Shown here in pieces: positions 1-25,181 of a stretch of 25,867 nt of DNA; the stretch's first letter is position 1; each line of letters starts with the position of its first letter. The stretch spans positions 1 through 25,867 of the forward strand of contig LWCA01000487.1 in the NCBI GenBank assembly GCA_001642005.1. The letters are read 5' to 3'. Source of the DNA: Intoshia linei (lineage: Eukaryota > Orthonectida > Rhopaluridae). The notes under the pieces are model-generated. The model was not told the DNA's origin. It made no database searches and was given only the letters and a program-made list of their open reading frames with translations. The position numbers and the translations under genes were made by a program.

Positions 1-1
1 G

Positions 2-595
2 CAAGTTTTTGTTAAGGAAACGAATAGATATGCAAAACAAAAAAATAGACAAAAATTTAAAACTAATTTATCAGAATTACGAGTAAATGTATTACGATAA
101 AATGATAACTCAGTTGTAACATTTGCTAGCAACGTTTGTGGTGTAGAACCTATTGGAAAGGTCAAAAGATGGAGTAAAAAATATAATCACGGAATGGATG
201 GCGTTGATATATTTGACAGAGCGGCTTCGGATTATCGACCCTTGATTAGAGCTAAGAAGTGGTATTTCCCCTTAATGATCCATGGCATTAATGCTCTAAT
301 GGTTTACGCATGGCGTATGTACCAAATGATTCATCAATGTAAAATGCCTCAATTACAATTTCGAAGAAGCGTAGTTCTTGGTGCAATTACTACATCATTT
401 CCTCGCCCAATTACAGGGCCTCAGTTAACAGTATCGACTCCATCTCGATTTGATGCAGTCGACCATGTACCTATTAGTATTCAACCAAGAAGGTGTATTC
501 TGTGTAAAAAGAATTGTCGCATAAAATGCAATAAATGCCAAAAAGCCTTACACATTAATACTTGTTTTCAAAATTATTATTCAGAATTTGAATAA
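2..595 (+). pseudogene. piggyBac transposase, C-terminal part with internal stop
   Basis: The frame is open from base 2 to the TAA at 593-595 except for an in-frame TAA at 98-100. The sequence fits the end of a PGBD-type DDE transposase: a stretch beginning MDGVDIFDR from base 194, then YRPLIRAKKWYFPL, a Leu/Trp-rich helix (HGINALMVYAWR), and a C-terminal Cys-rich zinc-finger-like tail (CILCKKNCRIKCNKCQKALH...C) as in active piggyBac proteins. The stop at 98-100 falls where relatives usually have Trp, in the segment before the conserved GVDxFD block, so the copy is probably dead. The ATG at 194 is internal, not a real start. The catalytic Asp residues of the central domain would lie before the window, apart from that in GVDIFD. 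An AATAAA overlaps the stop region at 592-597. Confidence 0.85.
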
Positions 596-830
596 TAAAG
601 TTTTATTTTAATGCTTTTGACTGTAATAATTTAATTTTGTTAATTACAATTCGTAAAAAGTTAAAATAATCAAATTAATTTGGTCGTTACAAATATTGAA
701 TATAAACTTTTTTAAATAGCTGTTGCTATATTGACACTTAGTCCTATTGGTTAAATTTTAATTCTGAGTCATAATGAATATCAAGATATATATAACTAAA
801 GTCATTAATGTTTTTTTCCGGTTAGCGGCT

Positions 831-1309: not shown

Positions 1310-1517
1310 ACAAAGACGAATATAATATCTCAACTTTTAATGTTTAAATCTTTTAATAATATGTTTCCTGGACCAATGGCTTCATTAATATATGAGTTGG
1401 TTGTTGTAAAGGGCGATAGCTTAAAAAATGGTGAAAAATTTGTTAGAATGTATTACAGAGATACAAACGGATCGAACAATACACTCATTGAATTGTCTCT
1501 TGACATTGATGGACAAA
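1310..1517 (+). CDS. HAP-A, histidine acid phosphatase-like, antepenultimate exon
   Basis: An exon bounded by acceptor TTAG (ends 1309) and donor A|GTAATA at 1518, phase 0 in and phase 1 out. It encodes the C-terminal core of a histidine acid phosphatase (lysosomal/prostatic type): residues aligning just after the catalytic HD (TKTNIISQLLMFKSF), then PGPMASLIYEL and GEKFVRMYYRDT. These match the family pattern PxxASxLxxEL...VRxYYRN. HAP-B in this window has PGFTDALIYEL and GEKFIRLYYRKT at the same places. Without a splice the frame would stop at 1541. The next exon with matching phase is at 6242. The catalytic N-terminal exons would lie upstream of the window, so activity cannot be judged. 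The ATG at 1340 is internal. Confidence 0.72.
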
Positions 1518-6241: not shown

Positions 6242-6578
6242 AATGTTCTCACATTTGCCCATATAATTCATTTGTTTCCATATTGTCAAAATATAGAAAG
6301 AGCATGGAAGTAATAGAAGATATTTGTGAAATTGAAACATATCCACGTAGAATATATTTATTATATTATTTAACCATCAAAATAATTTAGAATTTTACAA
6401 GTATCTTTCTTTTTTTTTGATATTTTTGATAGTATTGGTATTTACTGGAATTGTTGCTGTCGGAATAAAGTCTTATGCCAACAGAATAGATGAGATTCCA
6501 ATAGAATATGAAGAAGTTATAACCAGCACAAATAATGATGAGGTTGACAGTTTAGATATAAAAACAAACATTAATTAA
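6242..6578 (+). CDS. HAP-A, last two exons: C-terminal motif, membrane span, tail
   Basis: Exon 6242-6346 enters in phase 1, matching the phase-1 donor at 1517. It encodes CSHICPYNSFVSILSKYRKS, which fits the family's conserved GCxxxCPLxxFxxL block that closes the phosphatase domain and carries two disulphide cysteines. A 44-nt intron (GTAGAA...TTTAG, 6347-6390) leads in matching phase to exon 6391-6578. That exon gives a hydrophobic span (FFLIFLIVLVFTGIVAVGI), a basic stop-transfer residue and a 37-residue acidic tail ending ...DIKTNIN at TAA 6576-6578. The product is therefore a type I membrane phosphatase like lysosomal acid phosphatase. It is convergent with HAP-B and has a poly(A) signal 26 nt after the stop. 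The same intron positions and phases occur in HAP-B. Confidence 0.72.
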
Positions 6579-6603: not shown

Positions 6604-6617
6604 AATAAATATTTATT
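6604..6617. promoter_or_regulatory. palindromic poly(A) signal shared by two convergent genes
   Basis: AATAAATATTTATT is a perfect 14-bp palindrome, so AATAAA can be read on both strands. On the plus strand it lies 26 nt past the HAP-A stop. On the minus strand the AATAAA overlaps the HAP-B stop codon (6615-6613). Use by both genes is inferred. Confidence 0.5.
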
Positions 6618-9600
6618 CTTTGATATCGTCATTTTCGTCTTTATTTAATTCATTTTCATTTTCTTCGTTATCATTTGTCATTTCACGTTTTTTTCTCATA
6701 AATGTTACGACTATTAATCCAAAAAATACTAATATAGACAGCCCGAGAATGCTTGCCAAAATTACCGATAAAATTTGAAAAATGTCTAAATTTTTAATCA
6801 GTTAAGTTTAAATACATTTGAACCAAGCATTAAAAATGGCAATGAAAATGTTTACCGTTTTCGTCGTCTTTTGATTTGCAGTGCAATTGTACATCAGTAT
6901 CATCCAATTTAGTATGTTTATTTAATATTTTGTAGAAAGTGTTAAGAGGACACAATTTTTCACATCCTATTATTAAAATATAAAGTTATATTATATTACA
7001 TCTTATTATTATTATTAGGCAAACTTTCACATACGTATATTATCAAAAATATGTATTTATGATCACACTAGTTAAACATGAAGGAAGTAAAAAAGTATTT
7101 TGAGGTTAAATCAAAACCAAAAAAAGTATGTAGCGTAATCGTCAAATATTTTTTGAGTTTATATGCGTAATCACGACAAAGATAATGTCTATAAATATTA
7201 AAAGAAGTTACTTTAATCTGAAAATATGTTACCTTCAATTTTTTGCAAAATTAACTGAGAATCTTCATTGACTGTTTTTCTGTAATACAATCTAATAAAT
7301 TTTTCGCCTTTTTTGTTGTCCTCTAAGATATTTTCTTCAACTAATTCATAAATTAATGCATCTGTAAAGCCAGGCATTCCATCTGTTCCAACATTTAAAA
7401 TTTCCATTTGAACTAATAGACTCACCATTCTCTAAATATTTATTATACATTATTATTATATTTAATAAGTGATATTACAGCGACATTAATTGTCATGACC
7501 ACATTAGATGTTCCATTGGTGAAACTTTCAAATTGGTCCTTAATTTTGTGCATTAAATAACCTAAAAAATACATTTTTTATTTAATAATATGAAAAATGC
7601 TCATTGAACATTGATCATTTACAATATAAACGGCTATGTCTGAAACTAATGGACTAAAAACTTTCTGCTAATTAATATAAATTATAATTGGCAACTCCAA
7701 TGAAAAAGTTTTTATCAAATGGATTTAAATTGTTTATTAAAACTGGTCATTAATTTAATAATTCTTTTTACAACATTTTATTCGTTATCAACCAACTATC
7801 ATATCTTAGCAATGTTAAATAGTTGTCAACATTCGGCGATGTAAAGATAAATGAATTACCATACTTAAAAATACATTAGCCTATAAATAAAAAATATTTA
7901 AATACTAGCTGAACATACGAAATATTATATATTATCATAATAGCAATGAAATGCCAATACCCCAAAGTGATCCTCGCTCAAGTTTTCTTTGAAAGGGTTA
8001 TAATTTGATATATCTAATTGAAAATAATAATTAAATATACTGCTCATAAAATTAGTGATTTCTTTATCTTTGAATCCAAAAGTCTCCTTAATTTCATGTA
8101 AACGGATTATCATCTGGCCATATGTACTGTTTTTATATTTCTGATTTGCCCAACTGGGGTATTTAATATCTCCATAATGCTAATTTCAAAAATAAATATA
8201 ATAATTTATATATTCTATATAATTTGTAATTTGTAAATTATAAACTTTTGAACGTAAATTATCTCCTATTATAGCAATAGATTCCATGTCTATAGGTTGT
8301 TTCATTTTATCACTGACCAGTTTGAATAATTCCTATAAAGTTAATTAAAATTGAAGATAATTAAATTACAGGATATTCATCTTCGTATTTCTTTAATACC
8401 GGACTCTGTTCCAAGTCAGCCATATGTTCTATTAACTTATGACATGCACCAGGGTTTAAATACTAAAAATTATTAATTATATTATATTTTTTAGATGAGT
8501 CCAATTTATAAAATGGTTAACTATAATTAATTATAAATAACTCATTTAGAATTTTAAGTGAAAAATCGGACGGTTAACGATAAACTTATATGCATGAATT
8601 ATATAAATAATATACTCCAAACATAAAGTATATTGTATCTGTACACTAGGGTCACACGTATTTTAGGATCAAGGACGAACGGAACGCATTCTGTGCATTT
8701 TCTACCACAACGAATTACTAAAAGTAATAAAACTTTTTTTATTATCATTTTTATATTTATTACAATCCTTTTCAATATTATATAATTCACCTTAGATATG
8801 TTTATAAAGCGCTGATTCTGTTAATTATTGATACATAATTGGTATATTTAAGTAAAAAGTAATGTGATATGACGGTTCCACCTAAAACAAGTTTTGGAAC
8901 CACTCTTTTAAAGGATTGGTAATAATGAATAGTACGATTTTTAAGTTAGATTTTCAACGTGAATTTATTTTTTTGGTAGAATAAAAGTGTGCCCTCGGCA
9001 GAGCTAGGTGCTGTTTTTACGTAGTACATAACAGTCAACCTAGTATAATATAATATGGAGGCCACATAAATGTTTAATAACCGATAAATATGGATATGAC
9101 GTTATGAGTCGAATAAAGCTCAGTTTTAATTTTTCTATAACATTTTTATATAAGAGATTTAAAATGATTAACCCCGACTCAATACTTACTATATAATAAT
9201 TATTATATAGTAATATACAGTGGTCGCTCCCTAAATTGAACAGAATTTAAATACACTCAGCGATCACTATACATGGTAAAAACATACATTTCGGCTCTTG
9301 AACATGAACACAATTTATTGTGATTTTTCTTATAAATTTGTTGAAATTTAATTAATTTTCTATATAATTTAAGAAATTTATAAGAAAATGCGAGTTTTTC
9401 AATCTGAAAAATTCATTCATTTTAAAATTTTGATTTTTCTCATAAATTTCACAATAAATATAGTATGAAATAATTAACTACAGTGTTCAATCTCTAAAAC
9501 TTGAACACCATCCATTTTTTTGCAGTTAGTGTTCAATTTAGAGAGCGATCACTGTAACTATATATGAATATTCCATAATTGCACAGAATGCAGTTCGTCC

Positions 9601-10702
9601 TTAAAATTCTTAAATTTTTGAAAAAATGTGATACACTATTGTATACAATACTGTTGCACAAATAAAATCAATTCTAAACTGGCATAATTGATACAATTAA
9701 TTTTACAATGGCATTTTTAACCATTTCGGTGATGTTACAGTTTTCCCATTCAGATTGATCATGTCTAATATTGCTCCAAGGGTATTTTAAAAAACTGGGA
9801 TTAACTATTTAAATTTTAAAATTAAAAATTTAAAATATGACAGTAGACCTGGGGAAATACTGATTTTTCGTTAGAACAAAATTATTAAATAATGATATTA
9901 GAGAAAAAATTATTTTAAAATTTAGTCATCCAAAACATAGTATTTAATTAAATTAAATTATTTTTATGTTTAATATATGGTAAAGTTTTGATTCGCTACG
10001 AATGTCTGTCAATGAAAACAGCTTATATCACTGTAAATAAATTTATATCAGAAATTAGTTTAAGATGTTACATAATCATAATCATCATTTAAAGTAGTAA
10101 CAGGTATCGGTTTCCATAGTTTAGAGTCCCATAAATTGGTTACTGACGACTTGAATAGTGCTACGTTTACTAAAAAAAAATGTTAACATCTTATGTTCAA
10201 ATAAAGAACTTAAATTGGCAGTTGCTAAACAGGCATTCATATCAACACTTCGAATCTTCACCTAAATAACCAAAAGTTAATGAATAAATTACATGTTACT
10301 CTAATTGGATTATAAATTCCAGCAATAAAGTTTTCGTTAACGTATCGATTTCTTACAAATTTTCCAAAAGCATAACTTTGAATCTCTCCTTGCTATAATT
10401 AATAAAACATTATTTCATACATTTCATTACTTTGGTTAGTTCTTTTAAACCTTGTGGCCAAATCTTTTCATCTCCATCAAGACTAAATTGTGAGGTTCTT
10501 TCGGCATTATGCACAAACTGAATGAAATACGTAATATATTTGTTTAAATAAATATTACCATTATAACTTTTAAAAACTTGTATTTGTCAAATTTTAAACC
10601 AATATTGTCTTCTTTCGTAACATGATCAGTATTCTTTGCTGATATGACCATTAAAAGTGCATAAATGCACGATACTGGTAAAAAATGAAAAATATTTTTC
10701 AT
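6613..10702 (-). CDS. HAP-B, catalytically dead histidine acid phosphatase paralogue (11 exons)
   Basis: Exons, high to low: 10702-10559, 10517-10431, 10392-10300, 10261-10072, 8462-8370, 8332-8246, 8179-7961, 7561-7479, 7431-7233, 6966-6856, 6785-6613; about 490 residues. It starts with a signal peptide (MKNIFHFLPVSCIYALLMVI). Family landmarks follow in order: WPQGLKELT, QGEIQSYAFGKFVRNRY, VKIRSVDMN, LWKPIPV, YPSW, PGFTDALIYEL, GEKFIRLYYRK and GCEKLCPLNTFYKIL. A membrane span (ILSVILASILGLSILVFFGLI) and an Asp/Glu/Asn-rich tail complete it. The RHGxRTP motif reads HNAERTS, DxDR reads DMNA, and the HD region reads TINVA, so the nucleophile and acid/base residues are gone. Two frame problems exist: a 1-nt excess in exon 4 at a run of nine T, and a 1-nt phase mismatch between exons 7 and 8. 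It is a pseudoenzyme gene or a young pseudogene. Most introns are 37-70 nt. Confidence 0.75.
7044..7075 (+). repeat. short dispersed repeat, copy in HAP-B intron 9
   Basis: AAAATATGTATTTATGATCACACTAGTTAA here corresponds to AAATATACGTATTTATGGTCACACTAGCTAA at 15206-15236, with few differences over about 30 bp. Shared sub-blocks are GTATTTATG and TCACACTAG. It is probably the end of a transposon family, but no partner end is seen. Confidence 0.45.
8849..9050 (+). repeat. 190-bp dispersed repeat, copy 1
   Basis: Closely similar to 13441-13603 (+) and to the reverse complement of 19844-20054. Conserved blocks are ACAAGTTTTGGAACCACT, GATTTTTAAGTTAGA, TCAACGTGAATTTATTTTTT, GGCAGAGCTAGGTG and ACGTAGTACATAACAGTC. 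There is no real ORF. The GGAACC/GGTTCC inverted motif at one side recalls hAT ends. Confidence 0.8.
9216..9556. mobile_element. pogo/Tc1-type MITE, 337 bp, TA target
   Basis: The left end is TA|CAGTGGTCGCTCCCTAAATT (from 9218). The right end read in reverse is TA|CAGTGATCGCTCTCTAAATT (to 9554). Both continue GAACA, so 22-23 of 25 bases agree. TA dinucleotides flank both ends (9216-9217, 9555-9556). Further copies of the motif lie inside (near 9259 and 9481-9508). CAGTG ends of this composition are typical of pogo/Tigger-like non-autonomous elements. It is inserted in the older element at 8647-9640. Confidence 0.85.
9641..10071. other. HAP-B intron 4, upstream part
   Basis: AT-rich sequence without recognisable coding or repeat structure, running up to the exon 4 donor. 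Confidence 0.4.
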
Positions 10703-12030: not shown

Positions 12031-13142
12031 TGTATAATAAATACAATACAGTATTTCGAGAATGATGCAGTATCGCAACTTTCATTATTAATCTTCATAA
12101 TTTATAGTTTTGATTAAAATAAATTTTTATATAAATACAATTAAATTTTTTTTATACAAACTAAATTTTATCGCGGGCACGATAACCCTGGTACATATGC
12201 ATTGCAAATTAATGAAAAAAATTGTTGAAACTTTTTAAATTCTTAAAATTATCTTTAAATTATCAATGAATATGAGAAACCTTATAAAAAATTAATTATT
12301 CACTTGTTCAACCAAATTTGTTTAAATTTGAATAAATATATTGTAGTGTGAATATTTTTTTATAAATGCAGTTTAATGAACCAATTATTCTAATTTTATC
12401 AAAATTAATTGTCAATTTATTTAAAACATAATAAACACATTTTTATATCGAAATAAACTGTACACAATTTTTCTAACCAAATTGACCCGACATCAATAAT
12501 TAAAAATAGAATATCGATTTTTACATTAATGATCGTAATATGTTACATCGTTACATTAATGATTAATAATATCGTAATATTATTTTAAGATATTATTAGG
12601 GCTATAATTATAAAAGGTTTATTTAAGATATATATAAAAATAAAAGCATTATACTTATAGTTAAATTTTAAAATATGTAATCGATTTATTGTACATTGCA
12701 CTACAAATTTTAAGTTTAATATTACTTTTATTACATCCATTCCATATGTTTTAATATTTGAAAATATTTTTTTCAATGTTATTATGCAGGACTGTTGTTG
12801 GAGCATTGTCTATTGTACTGACCACAAGTATCATTATAATTGTTATAAGTTAAATTAATTATTCACGTTTTGTATTAATAAAATTAAGAATAATAATAAT
12901 ATATGTATAAAATGCATTAATATCTTTAATTTGATTGTGAAATATAATATTAATATTCTATAAATTTTAAAAATAATATTTATGGTGTTGAAATTCGTAC
13001 GTAATCATACAGGTTCAAATAGAACAGACAAACTGAGTATTTTTATTTTTTTTATACTAAATATTAAACAAATGATATATTACTGGTTATTAAATTTGAA
13101 ACTCCAGGACCATTTTATTTCAACCAATTTTTTTAAATTATC
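12031..13142. other. intergenic AT-rich stretch
   Basis: No gene family is recognisable. The minus ORF at 12585-12806 is low-complexity. A plus-strand acceptor ATGCAG near 12790 is followed by a short hydrophobic open frame (TVVGALSIVLTTSIIIIVIS) ending in TAA near 12852. It could be the last exon of a small membrane protein, but no upstream exon was found. Confidence 0.3.
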
Positions 13143-13200: not shown

Positions 13201-13440
13201 GTCTTAGAATTTTATAAAGTCTCATTTCTATTAAAGTTTTTTCCGGGTGTTAGTAAGATACATTTCAACCTCCCCAACTTACATCTTACGGGTCAAAAAG
13301 TCCAGTTTTTTTTTTGAAAATCAAAATGAGTTCGAGAATTTAAAAAAAATTACAGGTGGTACAGTTGTATTCTGTTAACACACACAAAAAATTTCAATCT
13401 GAATAAGTGACGCCTTCACGTCCAAAAAAGCACTTTAGTA

Positions 13441-13603
13441 TCTACCTATAACTAGTTTAGGAACCACTCCTTTAAAATATTGATAATGATGAATAGTAGG
13501 ATTTTTAAGTTAGACTTTCAACGTGAATTTATTTTTTTGGTAGAATAAAAATGTACCCTAGGCAGAGCTAGGTGATGTTTTTACGTAGTACATAACAGTC
13601 TAG
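13441..13603 (+). repeat. 190-bp dispersed repeat, copy 2
   Basis: It matches copies 1 and 3 over GAACCACTCCTTTAAA, GATTTTTAAGTTAGACTTTC, AACGTGAATTTATTTTTTTG, GGCAGAGCTAGGTGATG and ACGTAGTACATAACAGTC. It is truncated on its left compared with copies 1 and 3. Confidence 0.8.
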
Positions 13604-14107: not shown

Positions 14108-14867
14108 ATGTCGATGAAATATTTATATTTTTTAATTTTAATAAATTTAAAAATTTGCAAAATAAATCTCAATACGATAATAACAAATTATACTGCATTT
14201 AATCATAATCTTGAAAGTTTTTAAAATGAGAAATTGGATAGCAATGATAAAAAAAACAGAAGAATTTATATATGAGACTAAATTTTATATTTTTATGTTT
14301 AAAATGTGTATAAGTCAATTAATATAATTTTAAAATCACAATTTTAATCTTATTAAATTAATCAATTAAAAAATTTGAAAAATATTTATTGTACAATGTA
14401 CATTATTGATATCCAATACTTATATAAAAATGAATTTCTGTGTGTGTGTTTGCGTGTGTATAACCATTTATTGAACAAATTGATAGTCGCAAAATTTTAA
14501 AAAAACCCAACTTCTCATACCATCATATTTTTAAAATAAGTCAAAATTTTACAATTATGACAGAGTTTGTTATCTAAGTAACATAAAATACGTATTATCT
14601 AAGTATAAAATATGGCCACACTAACTATAATAATGTGGCCCGCTTAATCTGTCACTATTAAGTATGTATTTTTCTATAATTATTAAAATAATAAATTAGG
14701 AATTTATATCTATTATATATATATATTTATTATATTTATATATTTTATTATATTATTATATTATATATATTTATATCCCAGTTGTCATAATACTTATATC
14801 ATTATCTATAATTGTGACTGTTATAATATTAAATTGCCATCATAAAAACACCAAAGTTCCAGTTTAA
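14108..14867 (+). CDS. small single-span membrane protein, three exons
   Basis: Exon 1, 14108-14216, encodes a signal-peptide-like start (MSMKYLYFLILINLKICKIN) and potential N-glycosylation site NYT. A 43-nt intron (GTTTTTAAA...AAACAG) leads to exon 2, 14260-14307 (EFIYETKFYIFMFKM). Its donor GTATAAGT is near consensus. Exon 3, 14782-14867, starts after ATCCCAG and gives a strong membrane span (VVIILISLSIIVTVIIL) followed by a short basic tail NCHHKNTKVPV and TAA. All junctions are phase 1 to phase 1. AATAAA overlaps the stop (14867-14872). The product is about 80 residues: secreted N-terminus, tiny ectodomain, one span. The family is not recognised. The second intron contains a TG-rich repeat and an AT microsatellite. 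The model rests only on frame and splice consistency. Confidence 0.45.
14418..14515 (+). repeat. ACTTATATA/TG-rich dispersed repeat, copy 2
   Basis: ACTTATATAAAAATGAATTT, then CTGTGTGTGTGTTTGCGTGTG, ATAACCATTTATTGAACAA and a run ending AAAAACCCAAC. It shares block order with 13146-13200 and 24318-24395 and lies in the second intron of the small membrane-protein gene. Confidence 0.5.
14705..14775. repeat. TA/TTA-rich microsatellite
   Basis: About 70 bp almost wholly composed of TATAT and TTATATTA units, just upstream of the exon 3 acceptor at 14781. Confidence 0.7.
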
Positions 14868-15205
14868 ATAAATGTTCTGTTACAAATATTTGATACATAT
14901 ATGCTTTCAACCACATTTTTTATTTAAAAATCACTGTCATGCCGTCGATTATTTCAATGCACCATGTATAAAGTTTTCTTTAAATAGGTATGTATATTTT
15001 TACTATATATAAACCGCCTAAACAACAATGCCGAACCTACTGTATCTGAGGTCCCTCTTCGATTAGGCTAAATAATTGTAATATGATGGCATCGTTTTTG
15101 CAAATTGAGAATTAAGAAAATTATATTGTTGAGTATCATATTAATACATTCATCTATTTTTTCGGTAAAATTTTGTTTAATTTTAAATTCTGTTTTGATT
15201 TATTT

Positions 15206-15712: not shown

Positions 15713-16217
15713 TCATATTATAAATTTACATGTTTTAATTATTGTTTAATGCAATTCAATTAAAGTAAGTATTAATTAATCGTATTGGATTATACAGTGT
15801 AAATCACCATTGAAGATATGTAAAATTTTAATAAAGATCTAAATTATTAATATTATATTTATGATTCTAAATGTTAATAACTCTAAAATAGCCTAATATT
15901 GTAATTTTACTACCAAATTTTCTCATATTTATATTTCTTTGACACGCGGATATTGAATTTTTTAAAAAATAAAGGAAAACAAGGGTGCGTATTTAATGGT
16001 TCAAACCCACGATAAATATTAATTTTGATTACGTTATGTTAGGATATTAGACAATAATAGATAACAAATATTTTTGACTAAGTATATTAAATAGAGCGCA
16101 ATATCTAGTGTAAAACAAAATTATAAACTAAAAATAAAATGTCTTCATTTTCCAATCAATCCATCCTGGCATGTGACAAATATTTTTACAGAATTATTTA
16201 TTTTAAATTAATGTAAA

Positions 16218-16896
16218 TTATTTCTCTATATCAATATTTTCATTAGACTTTTGAATCAAACATTCCATTATTTTTTTCATTTTTGTAACATTTGTTTTGC
16301 CATCTAACAGTTCAAATCTGCGAGAATATCTCTTTTTGTGTAGAGGTTTTTTACTGATTTTAAAATGTACAATTATTAGTAAAATTGCTCCAAATATAAT
16401 AAAAGAAAATAGTACTACAAGGACACAAAAGAATATAGTTTTGTAACTATCCGACTTTACTACATTGTAGATTATCGGAGTGTGATTATAGAAATTATTA
16501 TTCTTCAATTGGATATTTTCATCGTCTTCTTGAGTTGTATTGACATTACTTTCATCTATATTTCCATTTATAATTACATTTTCATCATTTTTGTCCACTT
16601 GATTATTTTTAATTCCATTATTGATATTATTATTGCTTTTTGTTTCACTACTACCATTATCTTTATTTATTTCAGTTACATTATTCATATTGCCAACATC
16701 GGAGCTTGTACAATCGATATTAAACTTTTTAGATACATCATCATAACATTGATTCATATATAATTTGTACATATCCTAAAATGTAATTCAAATTTTTAAA
16801 TAATAAGGTGATGAATAGTTACATTTTAAAATTTAAAACCACCATGTTTTGGTCACATTTTCTTCTGATTACTTTTAATTGCTCATTTAGATAGCC
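16218..16896 (-). CDS. HAP-C, C-terminal exons of an Asn-rich single-span membrane protein
   Basis: The last exon, 16775-16218, follows acceptor ATTTTAG and stays open for 185 codons. It encodes a Cys-containing segment (MYKLYMNQCYDDVSKKFNID, then C), then about 80 residues rich in Asn, Asp and Glu with several Nxx(S/T) sites, then a membrane span (FFCVLVVLFSFIIFGAILLI) and a basic 47-residue cytoplasmic tail. A phase-0 exon at 16896-16843 (LNEQLKVIRRKCDQN) can be joined by a 67-nt intron with donor ATG|GTGGTT. Aligned by eye, NEQLxxIxxxC...YKLY...DD...C resembles HAP-B NEDSQLILQKIEGC...YKIL...DD...C, so it may be a very diverged phosphatase paralogue; that is a weak inference. The ORF on the opposite strand (16482-16763) is a shadow. 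Upstream exons were not found. Confidence 0.55.
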
Positions 16897-19843: not shown

Positions 19844-20054
19844 TTGATAATATAATAAACTAGGTTGACTGTTATGTACTACGTACAAACAGCACCTAGC
19901 TCTGCCGAAAGCACATTTTTCTTCTACCAAAAAAATAAATTCACGTTGAAAATCTAACTTAAAAATCCTACTAGTCACTATTATCAATCCTTTAAAAAAG
20001 TGGTTCCCAAACTTGTTTTAGGTAGAATTTGCATATCACATTACTATTTACTTT
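19844..20054 (-). repeat. 190-bp dispersed repeat, copy 3
   Basis: It is the reverse complement of copy 1 over nearly its full length, including AAGTAA..AGTAATGTGATATG at one edge and ACATAACAGTCAACCTAGT at the other. On the plus strand it contains AGTGGTTCCCAAACTTGTTT, a hAT-like motif. The minus ORF 19766-19987 runs through it and is not a gene. Confidence 0.8.
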
Positions 20055-22786: not shown

Positions 22787-24220
22787 TTAATTAATATTTA
22801 TTTTTTCACGTTCATCATTTTTTCTTGATTCCAGTTGTTGTTTTAATTCTTTTATAATATATTTATTACGTTGGTTTTCTGTTTTCAGTTTCAAACTTGA
22901 GACAGATTTCTAATATAGAGAATTAATATTTATGTAACTAGTAAAATCATTAAATTCGTATTTATAGTAAATAATAAACCTTTTGAGTATCGTAGCAATT
23001 GACGAAACATGAATGTTTGGACCATCCTTTCGATAAATCAAGCGATTGAACCATCATCTAATATATAATTTTTTAATTGGATTTTGAGATTAATTTATAT
23101 GAAATCATGGTAGCACTTTTTTTTCAATAAGTTAAGTTTTTGCTAGCTTTAGAGTCAATAATTACTATTTTCACGATCTCACACTAATACCTAGAGTATT
23201 TATCTAATTTAATTTAGTATACAAAATATCAATCTGATCTAGAAAGGCTAGTTAAATTTTTACCCTCTAAGGCAGTGATTCTCACTTTTTTACCATAGCG
23301 CATACTTAGCATAAACCACCTAATTTGTAATTTTATAGATTATTTTTTCGAATGAATCAATGATTTGTGTGATGGGCAACCAATGTAAAAATGTGCGCAG
23401 AAGATCATGCGAATCGTCAAGGCCAGAATGCATCATACAAACAGTAAAATTTTCTAACAAAAGTAATGGTTTTGGGGATATATCTTCTGTGGGAATGGGT
23501 GAATTACAGATTTGTGAAGGTATAATGAACCAGCATACCTATAAAAATGTATTAAAAAATTTTTTTGATGAAGTGACACAACGGCACATTGATCAGAAGT
23601 ATATATTCCAACATGATTCCGCTCCATGTCACAAAGCCGAATCTGTAACTTCATATTTCCAAAATGAAGGTATTGCCATTCTTGAATGGCCCGGAAATTC
23701 CCCAGATATGAACCCAATCGAAAATTTGTGGGCAAAATTGAAAGAGGAAGTTCATACAATTCCAATAAGATCAAAATCGGAACTGATTATTCGCCTACAT
23801 ACAGTATGGAACAATTCTTCTAATTTGAAAAAACTGGCAAAAGACGTATTAATAGTATGCCGCGGAGAGTTATGGCTCTCATACATGCTGAAGGAGGTGT
23901 TACAAAATATTAATTAATTTTAATTAATCATAAATATATATGTAACTTATATTCAAAATTTTATTTAATTTCATCAACTCATTAGTGAATTAATAACAAA
24001 AGAATATATAAAAAATAATTATTATAATCTTATGATCAACACTATTATGCATCGTGGAGAAATGGATTAAAACATTTCATAACATCTTTGCATATAAAAT
24101 TATTACTTGACCCTTCTTTGCAGCACAATTTCTAGATTTTTCCAATAATAATTTTTCTTGAGTTTCTGTCAATATTTTTAAAGTATATTGATAATTTGTT
24201 CGACTGTCGCTCAATTCATT
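22787..24220 (-). CDS. Lys/Glu-rich, probably coiled-coil protein, three 3' exons
   Basis: Exon 24220-24107 reads NELSDSRTNYQYTLKILTET, QEKLLLEKSRNCAAKKGQ, from acceptor GTTTAG to donor CAA|GTAATA. Exon 23057-22980 reads MMVQSLDLSKGWSKHSCFVN, CYDTQK, to donor AAG|GTTTAT. Exon 22909-22787 reads KSVSSLKLKTENQRNKYIIK, ELKQQLESRKNDEREKININ and TAA. All junctions are phase 0, so 38+26+40 residues join without shift. The first and last exons are highly charged and helix-prone with Leu/Ile spacing suggesting coiled coil; the middle exon has two Cys. No family is recognised. The 1049-nt intron contains a Tc1 transposase remnant; the other is 70 nt. The 5' exons lie at higher coordinates, not identified. 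Confidence 0.5.
23277..23350 (+). other. hAT-like terminus abutting the Tc1 remnant
   Basis: GGCAGTGATTCTCACTTTTTT, then ACCATAGCGCA, resembles a hAT end. No opposite end or target duplication was found, so it is only suggestive. Confidence 0.25.
23339..23917 (+). pseudogene. Tc1-like transposase, C-terminal two thirds
   Basis: The frame is open from 23339 (after TAG 23336-23338) to TAA 23915-23917. It covers most of the DDE domain of a Tc1-type transposase: IIFFSNES, NVRRRS, TVKFSNKSNGFGDISSVGMG, EGIMNQHTYKNVL, IFQHDSAPCHKAESV, and EWPGNSPDMNPIENLWAKLK. The second catalytic Asp (FQHDSAPCH) and the final Glu (PIENLW) are present with DD34E-type spacing. The first catalytic Asp, usually FSDES, is Asn here. 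The N-terminal paired-type DNA-binding domain and both inverted repeats are missing. It is therefore a 5'-truncated, inactive copy, lying antisense in the intron of the minus-strand gene 22787-24220. The overlapping minus ORF 23454-23774 is a shadow. Confidence 0.88.
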
Positions 24221-24587: not shown

Positions 24588-25181
24588 GCAGTGTTAGAGT
24601 TATAATGTTCTATCTGCATTTTTGTAAAAAATGAGGTTTTTGATGAAAAATGTTTTAAATCATATTTTACATTTTTACCAAAAAAATTAAGCTTGAAACC
24701 GTATTATTTTATGATATAACGAACATTTACTGGTTCAATTACTAAATCTCAACTTGATAATTCCTTAAAAAATTATCAAATTCCTATTAAAAATAACCTC
24801 GCAGATTCTAAAAAATAAGATATAAGTATGTTAATCAAAATAGACAATGAGTAAATAATTTTATAATTTAAACATATAAGTTAATAAAAATGTTAAATGT
24901 TAACAGTTTCTATAGAATAATGTTCTATTTGAATTTTTTTCAAATCAAATAGTTAGATAGATTGTTCTATTAGTGAAATTCAAGTTCTGAAAAACCCTTA
25001 TGTTTTTATTTTTATCGTACGAAACTTTTCAATATACTTTAACAAATATTAAAAAACTAAATTGTATAATTAAATTTCAACATAAAAATTATATTTTAGG
25101 CAATATAGTACTTTTAAACTTTAAAGTCGATTTATAAAAAACTATGTTTTTGCAGATAGAACATTATAACTCTAACACTGC
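24588..25181. mobile_element. MITE with 31-bp perfect terminal inverted repeats
   Basis: Both ends read GCAGTGTTAGAGTTATAATG then TTCTATCTGCA inward, identical over 31 bp. The total is 594 bp with no coding capacity. The ATGTTCTAT motif recurs inside (about 24918). CAGTG ends suggest hAT or pogo mobilisation. However, the flanks (ATATTG left, CGATAT right) show no clear 8-bp or TA duplication, so the superfamily is open. Perfect long repeats indicate a fairly recent insertion or strong constraint. Confidence 0.85.

What the first reader, a model, noticed from the sequence alone, without database searches (positions are those of the whole stretch)
6613..10702. Membrane-anchored acid phosphatase paralogue with a dismantled active site
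HAP-B keeps the signal peptide, family landmarks, C-terminal CxxxCPL block, membrane span and tail. But RHGxRTP reads HNAERTS (nucleophilic His to Asn, preceding Arg to His), the downstream DxDR reads DMNA (Arg lost), and the HD proton-donor region reads TINVA. Changes confined to catalytic positions with structure kept are what a pseudoenzyme recruited to binding would look like. The alternative is a recent pseudogene.
Basis: partly seen in the sequence, partly recalled or inferred. Interest (0 to 1): 0.75.

Follow-up and report, generated by a model that had tools for sequence, protein, structure and literature searches.

The report
Membrane-anchored dead acid phosphatase family
In the genome of the tiny parasitic worm Intoshia linei, one of several related genes for acid-phosphatase-like proteins reads open from start to stop but has lost five of the six residues the enzyme uses for catalysis, so its protein is predicted to keep the fold without the activity and likely binds some molecule instead.

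Summary
The gene is real: 12 exons, 11 GT-AG introns, 452 codons, no lesion. It is deposited as A3Q56_04022 of the orthonectid Intoshia linei, with the same residues at the catalytic sites. Five of six catalytic residues are replaced (R11H, H12N, R79A, H257R, D258M); R15 stays. "Changes confined to catalytic positions" is wrong: 33 of 69 other conserved positions changed too. The acid-phosphatase fold is still predicted. A recent dead gene is less likely: in neutral simulations, 8 distances with 2,000 runs each, no gene with five or more losses kept frame and splices. Of four other copies whose HD exon was found, A, E and F lost HD and C keeps all six residues. Flea saliva has acid-phosphatase-like proteins without catalytic histidines that bind amines and leukotrienes (PMC10728186), so the kind is known; a membrane-anchored family in another phylum is a new variant. 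Expression, selection against orthologues and ligand are untested.

The parts
10559..10702 (-). HAP-B exon 1: start codon and hydrophobic signal-peptide-like segment (residues 2-23)
   Evidence: model; Kyte-Doolittle peak 2.06
10431..10517 (-). HAP-B exon 2 with HNAERTS (10511-10491) in place of RHGxRTP: R11H, H12N, G13A, R15 kept, P17S
10300..10392 (-). HAP-B exon 3
10210..10261 (-). HAP-B exon 4 with DMNA (10243-10232) in place of DVDR: R79A
10072..10169 (-). HAP-B exon 5 with WKPIP block
8370..8462 (-). HAP-B exon 6 with a conserved cysteine (C129 of the human enzyme, number recalled)
8246..8332 (-). HAP-B exon 7
8041..8179 (-). HAP-B exon 8; the deposited model has extra small exons, 44 residues net, between here and exon 9
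   Evidence: model residues 271-309 of the deposited protein have pLDDT under 50
7479..7561 (-). HAP-B exon 9, ends ...TINVA (aligns with the residues before HD)
7233..7431 (-). HAP-B exon 10; first two codons R-M (7431-7426) replace the proton-donor dyad HD
6856..6966 (-). HAP-B exon 11 with CEKLCPL (6964-6944)
6613..6785 (-). HAP-B exon 12: membrane span (about 6783-6700), acidic tail, stop codon
   Evidence: hydropathy peak 2.87
1310..1517 (+). HAP-A exon starting T-K where HD should stand (C-terminal part of a second paralogue)
6242..6346 (+). HAP-A exon with CSHICPY block
6391..6578 (+). HAP-A last exon: hydrophobic span and tail with YEEV; stop 34 bases from the HAP-B stop (tail to tail)

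Best explanation
HAP-B is an open-framed member of the branch-2 histidine phosphatase family that has lost five of its six catalytic residues, is predicted to be a type I membrane protein with a normal acid-phosphatase fold, and likely works as a ligand-binding, non-catalytic surface or endosomal protein. Shown by sequence: the intact spliced frame, the substitutions, the hydrophobic segments, the kept cysteines, the sibling genes. Predicted: the fold, the membrane topology and the lack of phosphatase activity (no nucleophilic His, no R79, no His-Asp dyad). [quoted passage not shown]
Against: No expression data seen, no orthologue compared, no ligand tested. Catalytic loss in HAP-B alone is not significantly more frequent than change at other conserved positions (p 0.20), and it keeps only 3 of 7 conserved glycines and 6 of 13 prolines, so generally relaxed constraint fits too. 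Within-genome dS is saturated, so dN/dS near 0.5 is weak. The AlphaFold alignment was made of active HAPs, which favours the HAP fold, and residues 131-160 of the model sit at pLDDT 60-66. HAP-A's first exons were not found in the window and HAP-D's second half was not found, so some copies may be decaying. HAP-E and HAP-F keep the nucleophile His, so their inactivity is less sure than that of HAP-B. HAP-F's start did not reach the hydropathy cut-off used for a signal peptide. Tree rows are long-branched and the program warned of it. The control starts from the present sequence and excludes that the losses built up in an already neutral gene, not silencing after they were fixed.
Confidence: 0.62

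Rival explanations
1. A gene silenced very recently: catalysis was lost earlier under some other constraint, and the gene is now unexpressed but has not yet gathered lesions.
For: HAP-B is the faster evolver (36 of 69 other conserved columns kept against 54 of 69 in HAP-C); HAP-A's 5' exons were not found in the window, and a HAP-G fragment on C750 suggests that copies decay.
Against: 452 codons and 22 splice ends intact; in the simulation 5% of genes keep frame and splices at 0.02 substitutions per site and 0.1% at 0.05, indels ignored.
Confidence: 0.15
2. A phosphatase or other hydrolase with altered chemistry that uses residues other than the canonical ones.
For: The flea paper notes that substituted catalytic residues do not always abolish activity (PMC10728186, section 7 passage); R15 is kept.
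Against: Nucleophile, R11, R79 and the HD dyad are all gone at once; three flea proteins without both histidines did not process pNPP (PMC10728186, passage).
Confidence: 0.05
3. A regulatory partner: HAP-B pairs with the active-looking paralogue HAP-C (prostatic acid phosphatase is a dimer, recalled) and tunes or tethers it.
For: An intact, also membrane-anchored paralogue exists; the Trp of WKPIP, recalled as W106 at the dimer contact, is kept.
Against: The conserved His of PIPVHT, recalled as H112 at the dimer contact, is Thr in HAP-B; no co-expression data.
Confidence: 0.13
4. A gene-model or assembly artefact, with alternative exons restoring RHG and HD.
For: The deposited model and mine differ between exons 8 and 9.
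Against: Both models read the same catalytic codons. A six-frame pattern scan of open stretches of at least 15 codons found no AHD or HDT peptide in the window, and for the RHG pattern only HNAERTS and a KNADRT stretch at 24603-24659, outside the gene.
Confidence: 0.03

Closest known systems
[quoted passage not shown] PDB 8gdl is labelled acid phosphatase pseudoenzyme from flea and taken to be one of them)
   Same: HAP fold with catalytic residues replaced (H12G; H257S or P); a clade that mixes copies with both, one or no catalytic histidine
   Different: [quoted passage not shown] HAP-B has a predicted membrane anchor and tail, loses 5 of 6 catalytic residues, lies in an orthonectid, and has no tested ligand; 13% identity over 317 aligned residues to 8gdl
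Lysosomal acid phosphatase (ACP2) and membrane-spanning prostatic acid phosphatase
   Same: Signal peptide, HAP ectodomain, CxxxCP block, one membrane span, short tail (architecture recalled; names from the hits)
   Different: Catalytic residues kept in 113 of 119 such hits; the HAP-B tail holds no tyrosine, so no YxxPhi sorting motif (motif recalled)
PPIP5K/Vip1 phosphatase domain
   Same: Branch-2 histidine phosphatase domain that departs from the canonical motifs (recalled)
   Different: Cytosolic kinase-phosphatase whose phosphatase domain breaks down inositol pyrophosphates (PMC11836120, start of abstract in the listing); the C277 domain of this genome (936-codon frame) is taken to be of that kind, untested
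HAP-C of the same genome (A3Q56_01878)
   Same: Same intron before HD, anchored, full-length sibling, 32% identical
   Different: All six catalytic residues intact

Membership tests
Histidine phosphatase branch 2 (PF00328) | Profile score above Pfam's cut-off | tested here: met
   26.6 bits against 23.6, over residues 55-141
Histidine phosphatase branch 2 (PF00328) | HAP fold | tested here: met
   [not shown]
Active histidine acid phosphatase | RHGxRxP with nucleophilic His | tested here: not met
   HNAERTS
Active histidine acid phosphatase | DxDR arginine (R79) | tested here: not met
   DMNA
Active histidine acid phosphatase | HD proton-donor dyad | tested here: not met
   RM
Active histidine acid phosphatase | Phosphatase activity | not testable with these tools
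   needs purified protein
Pseudoenzyme | Intact open frame with catalytic residues lost | tested here: met
Pseudoenzyme | Expressed and under purifying selection after the loss | not testable with these tools
   no RNA reads; no orthologue found in three protein searches; within-genome dS saturated
Flea-type HAP ligand scavenger | Both catalytic histidines lost | tested here: met
   H12N, H257R
Flea-type HAP ligand scavenger | Soluble secreted protein | tested here: not met
   C-terminal hydrophobic span, peak 2.87; hydropathy only
Flea-type HAP ligand scavenger | Amine and eicosanoid pockets | not tested
   no coordinates of the model were at hand for a pocket comparison
Pseudogene | Stops, frameshifts or broken splice sites | tested here: not met
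   none

The most novel reading that the evidence does not exclude
Orthonectids have turned a small family of membrane-anchored acid phosphatases into surface or endosomal receptors: the catalytic site was dismantled in at least four copies (A, B, E, F), in different ways, while HAP ectodomain and membrane anchor were kept, giving the parasite a set of diversified ligand traps at its interface with the host, a second animal lineage besides fleas in which this fold became a binding protein.
Probability: 0.35. Interest if true: 0.68.

Novelty: new variant of a known kind. Interest (0 to 1): 0.5.

Why it matters
If true, loss of catalysis with retention of fold happened in the same enzyme family in fleas and in a phylum of highly simplified parasites, and here the altered copies carry membrane anchors. 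That would make the HAP fold a repeated source of binding proteins in parasites and give orthonectids a concrete set of surface candidates to test. Keeping several such copies in a small genome (34.65 Mb held here) would itself be informative.

Tried and rejected
Recent pseudogene: put second by the intact frame and the simulation. "Confined to catalytic positions": rejected by count. The first Fisher test used an off-by-one table; one search repeats it with the right one (p 0.20). Pooled A, B, E, F gives 15 of 20 catalytic against 100 of 215 other conserved sites changed, p 0.019, but the rows are not independent.

Rows dropped before the 119-row count: the two I. linei proteins and P0002 of Meloidogyne graminicola, which keeps RHG but shows no HD; by eye it lacks the whole stretch from HD to PPY, as if an exon were missing.

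One origin of the HD losses: the best tree splits A+B from E+F; holding the four together is not rejected (p-AU 0.18), so it stays open whether HD was lost once or more often. dN/dS within the genome: saturated, of little use. Other HAP copies in the window: at E under 0.1 the profile found only HAP-B and HAP-A pieces (listing cut near E 0.8). Searches with HAP-B, HAP-C, HAP-A, HAP-E and HAP-F in the same genome gave matches on C1113, C1304, C83, C630 and C750 only, and the Pfam search C277 and C83; these searches score only the best candidates. The HAP-G piece came from the profile scan. HAP-E was not modelled end to end: an exon between the DYDC exon and the RFFNLL exon was not recognised in the scan. 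The first HAP-A model took a wrong last acceptor and read stops; it was dropped for the one.

Orthologues: three protein searches showed no other orthonectid protein in their listings (one search lists 120 of 347). Papers: none held histidine acid phosphatase + pseudoenzyme, orthonectid + pseudoenzyme or acid phosphatase + pseudoenzyme + histidine phosphatase; orthonectid + phosphatase gave 3 papers, not on this subject by title; some searches gave 8, 9 and 7 papers, of which only PMC10728186 was opened. A fold that is not listed is not thereby excluded.

Full report
What the window is. The window is C1113:1-25867 of a genome of 34.65 Mb in 1,319 contigs; the window itself is 24% G+C. The protein of this span is deposited as hypothetical protein A3Q56_04022 of Intoshia linei, on a contig of 25,867 bases, so the window is very likely the whole contig. 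I. [quoted passage not shown] Most of its introns are short but longer than 30 bases (PMC6543705, passage).

The gene. On the minus strand from 10702 to 6613 twelve exons join into 452 codons with 11 introns, all GT-AG, in frame, without a stop. Seven introns are 37-66 bases; the others 70, 266, 479 and 1,609. The deposited protein (496 residues) shares the first 264 and the last 187 residues with this model and differs only between exons 8 and 9, where it has extra small exons; residues 271-309 of it, in that stretch, have pLDDT under 50. Both models read HNAERTS, DMNA and TINVA|RMVS, so the finding does not depend on the choice. The same way of splicing gave the sibling HAP-C exactly as deposited, 403 of 403 letters.

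Catalytic residues. Numbered as in human prostatic acid phosphatase (R11, R15, R79 and D258 recalled; H12 and H257 so numbered in PMC10728186): R11 to H, H12 to N, R15 kept, R79 to A, H257 to R, D258 to M. Of 119 outside relatives 113 keep all six, 4 have gaps there and nothing replaced, 2 have replacements (P0023, and P0050 with gaps too). These 119 are the listed best of 347 hits to HAP-C without HAP-C itself, so divergent HAPs are under-sampled; a Meloidogyne protein without HD, apparently lacking an exon, was left out of the count. The intron is shared: HAP-C reads IYNSA|HDTT, HAP-B TINVA|RMVS, and the phmmer alignment agrees.

Not confined to the active site. Of 69 other columns at least 90% conserved, HAP-B keeps 36, HAP-C 54. 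The excess of change at catalytic sites in HAP-B alone is not significant (5 of 6 against 33 of 69, p 0.20). Kept are 4 of 4 cysteines and 3 of 3 tryptophans, but only 3 of 7 glycines and 6 of 13 prolines. By eye both members of a third disulphide pair of the human enzyme (C183 and C281, recalled) are gone. So HAP-B evolved fast overall.

Dead gene or dead enzyme. I simulated neutral change from the present coding sequence at eight distances, 2,000 runs each; "changed" there means changed from the present residue, a stand-in for the real loss. To change five of six named codons with appreciable probability takes 0.3 substitutions per site or more (15.5% at 0.3, 43% at 0.5), where 20-27 stops and 12-18 splice lesions are expected. 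No run had five or more changes with no stop and no splice lesion. This argues that the catalytic losses did not build up in an already neutral gene. It does not exclude silencing afterwards.

The family. The same genome holds HAP-C (C1304), all six residues intact; HAP-F (C630), a 13-exon, 423-residue model with one GC-AG intron, not checked against a deposited protein, R11A, R15I, HD to DK, H12 and R79 kept, Pfam 57.7 bits; HAP-E (C750), RHG kept, R15S, R79C, HD to GK, incomplete model; HAP-A in this window, last three exons only, HD to TK; HAP-D (C83), N-terminal half with R11, H12, R15 and R79 intact, C-terminal half not found by the profile at E up to 1 in about 12 kb downstream; and a fragment HAP-G on C750. 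So of five copies in which the HD exon was found (A, B, C, E, F), four lack HD; only HAP-B also lacks the nucleophile His among those whose RHG exon was found. With catalytic columns removed the six I. linei rows form one group against 26 outside rows (99/98), A joins B (95/91) and E joins F (95/93), with long-branch warnings and with HAP-E and HAP-F entered as composites. A, E and F end in tails with YEEV, YTLI and YELI, which look like YxxPhi sorting motifs (recalled); the tail of HAP-B has no tyrosine. The start of HAP-F did not reach the hydropathy cut-off used for HAP-B and HAP-C.

What is known. In the rat flea, abundant salivary acid phosphatase-like proteins lack H12 and H257, do not process pNPP and bind serotonin or histamine and leukotrienes; sequences with both, one or no catalytic histidine form a clade seen only in fleas among the blood feeders compared (PMC10728186; outline, passages and section 10 seen). 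HAP-B works like these by inference; it is not shown to be one of them, and its predicted membrane anchor sets it apart. The kind, a HAP pseudoenzyme, is therefore known. I saw nothing on an anchored, multi-copy version in an orthonectid in the listings, which search an open-access library by words only.

Verdict. The best reading is a membrane-anchored acid-phosphatase pseudoenzyme from an intact gene, one of several altered copies in this genome, likely binding a ligand. Expression, selection and ligand remain untested.

Noticed in passing
window 1310-1517, 6242-6346, 6391-6578 (+): HAP-A, a second paralogue tail to tail with HAP-B (stops 34 bases apart); only its last three exons were found, and HD reads TK.
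   Followed up: partly
L034/L040 (contig C750), minus strand: HAP-E: RHGSSTP, DYDC and GKEI at the three catalytic motifs, with a hydrophobic span and a tail holding YTLI; a further HAP fragment (HAP-G) lies downstream of it.
   Followed up: partly
L033 (contig C630), 8994-3613, minus strand: HAP-F: 13-exon model with AHGEIEP and with DK in place of HD; one intron is GC-AG (GCAAGT).
   Followed up: yes
L020 (contig C83), minus strand 6046-4640: HAP-D: RHG and DVDR intact but no C-terminal half found in about 12 kb downstream.
   Followed up: partly
window 16200-16790 (-): Open frame of about 185 codons with an Asn-rich stretch and a hydrophobic span; no Pfam match up to E 1.
   Followed up: partly
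window about 12790-12853 (+) and 14785-14870 (+): Short open stretches after an AG that read, by eye, as a membrane span and a stop, like last exons without the rest of a gene.
   Followed up: no
window about 8880-9060 (inside intron 5 of HAP-B), 13440-13600, 19860-20035; also L034 and L040: A dispersed repeat (...GTTGACTGTTATGTACTACGTA...CAGCACCTAGCTCTGCCGA...), seen by eye, recurs in the window and near HAP-E.
   Followed up: no
window 1-600 (+) and 23340-23920 (+): Transposase-like remnants, by eye of piggyBac type at the contig start and Tc1/mariner type near 23,500.
   Followed up: no
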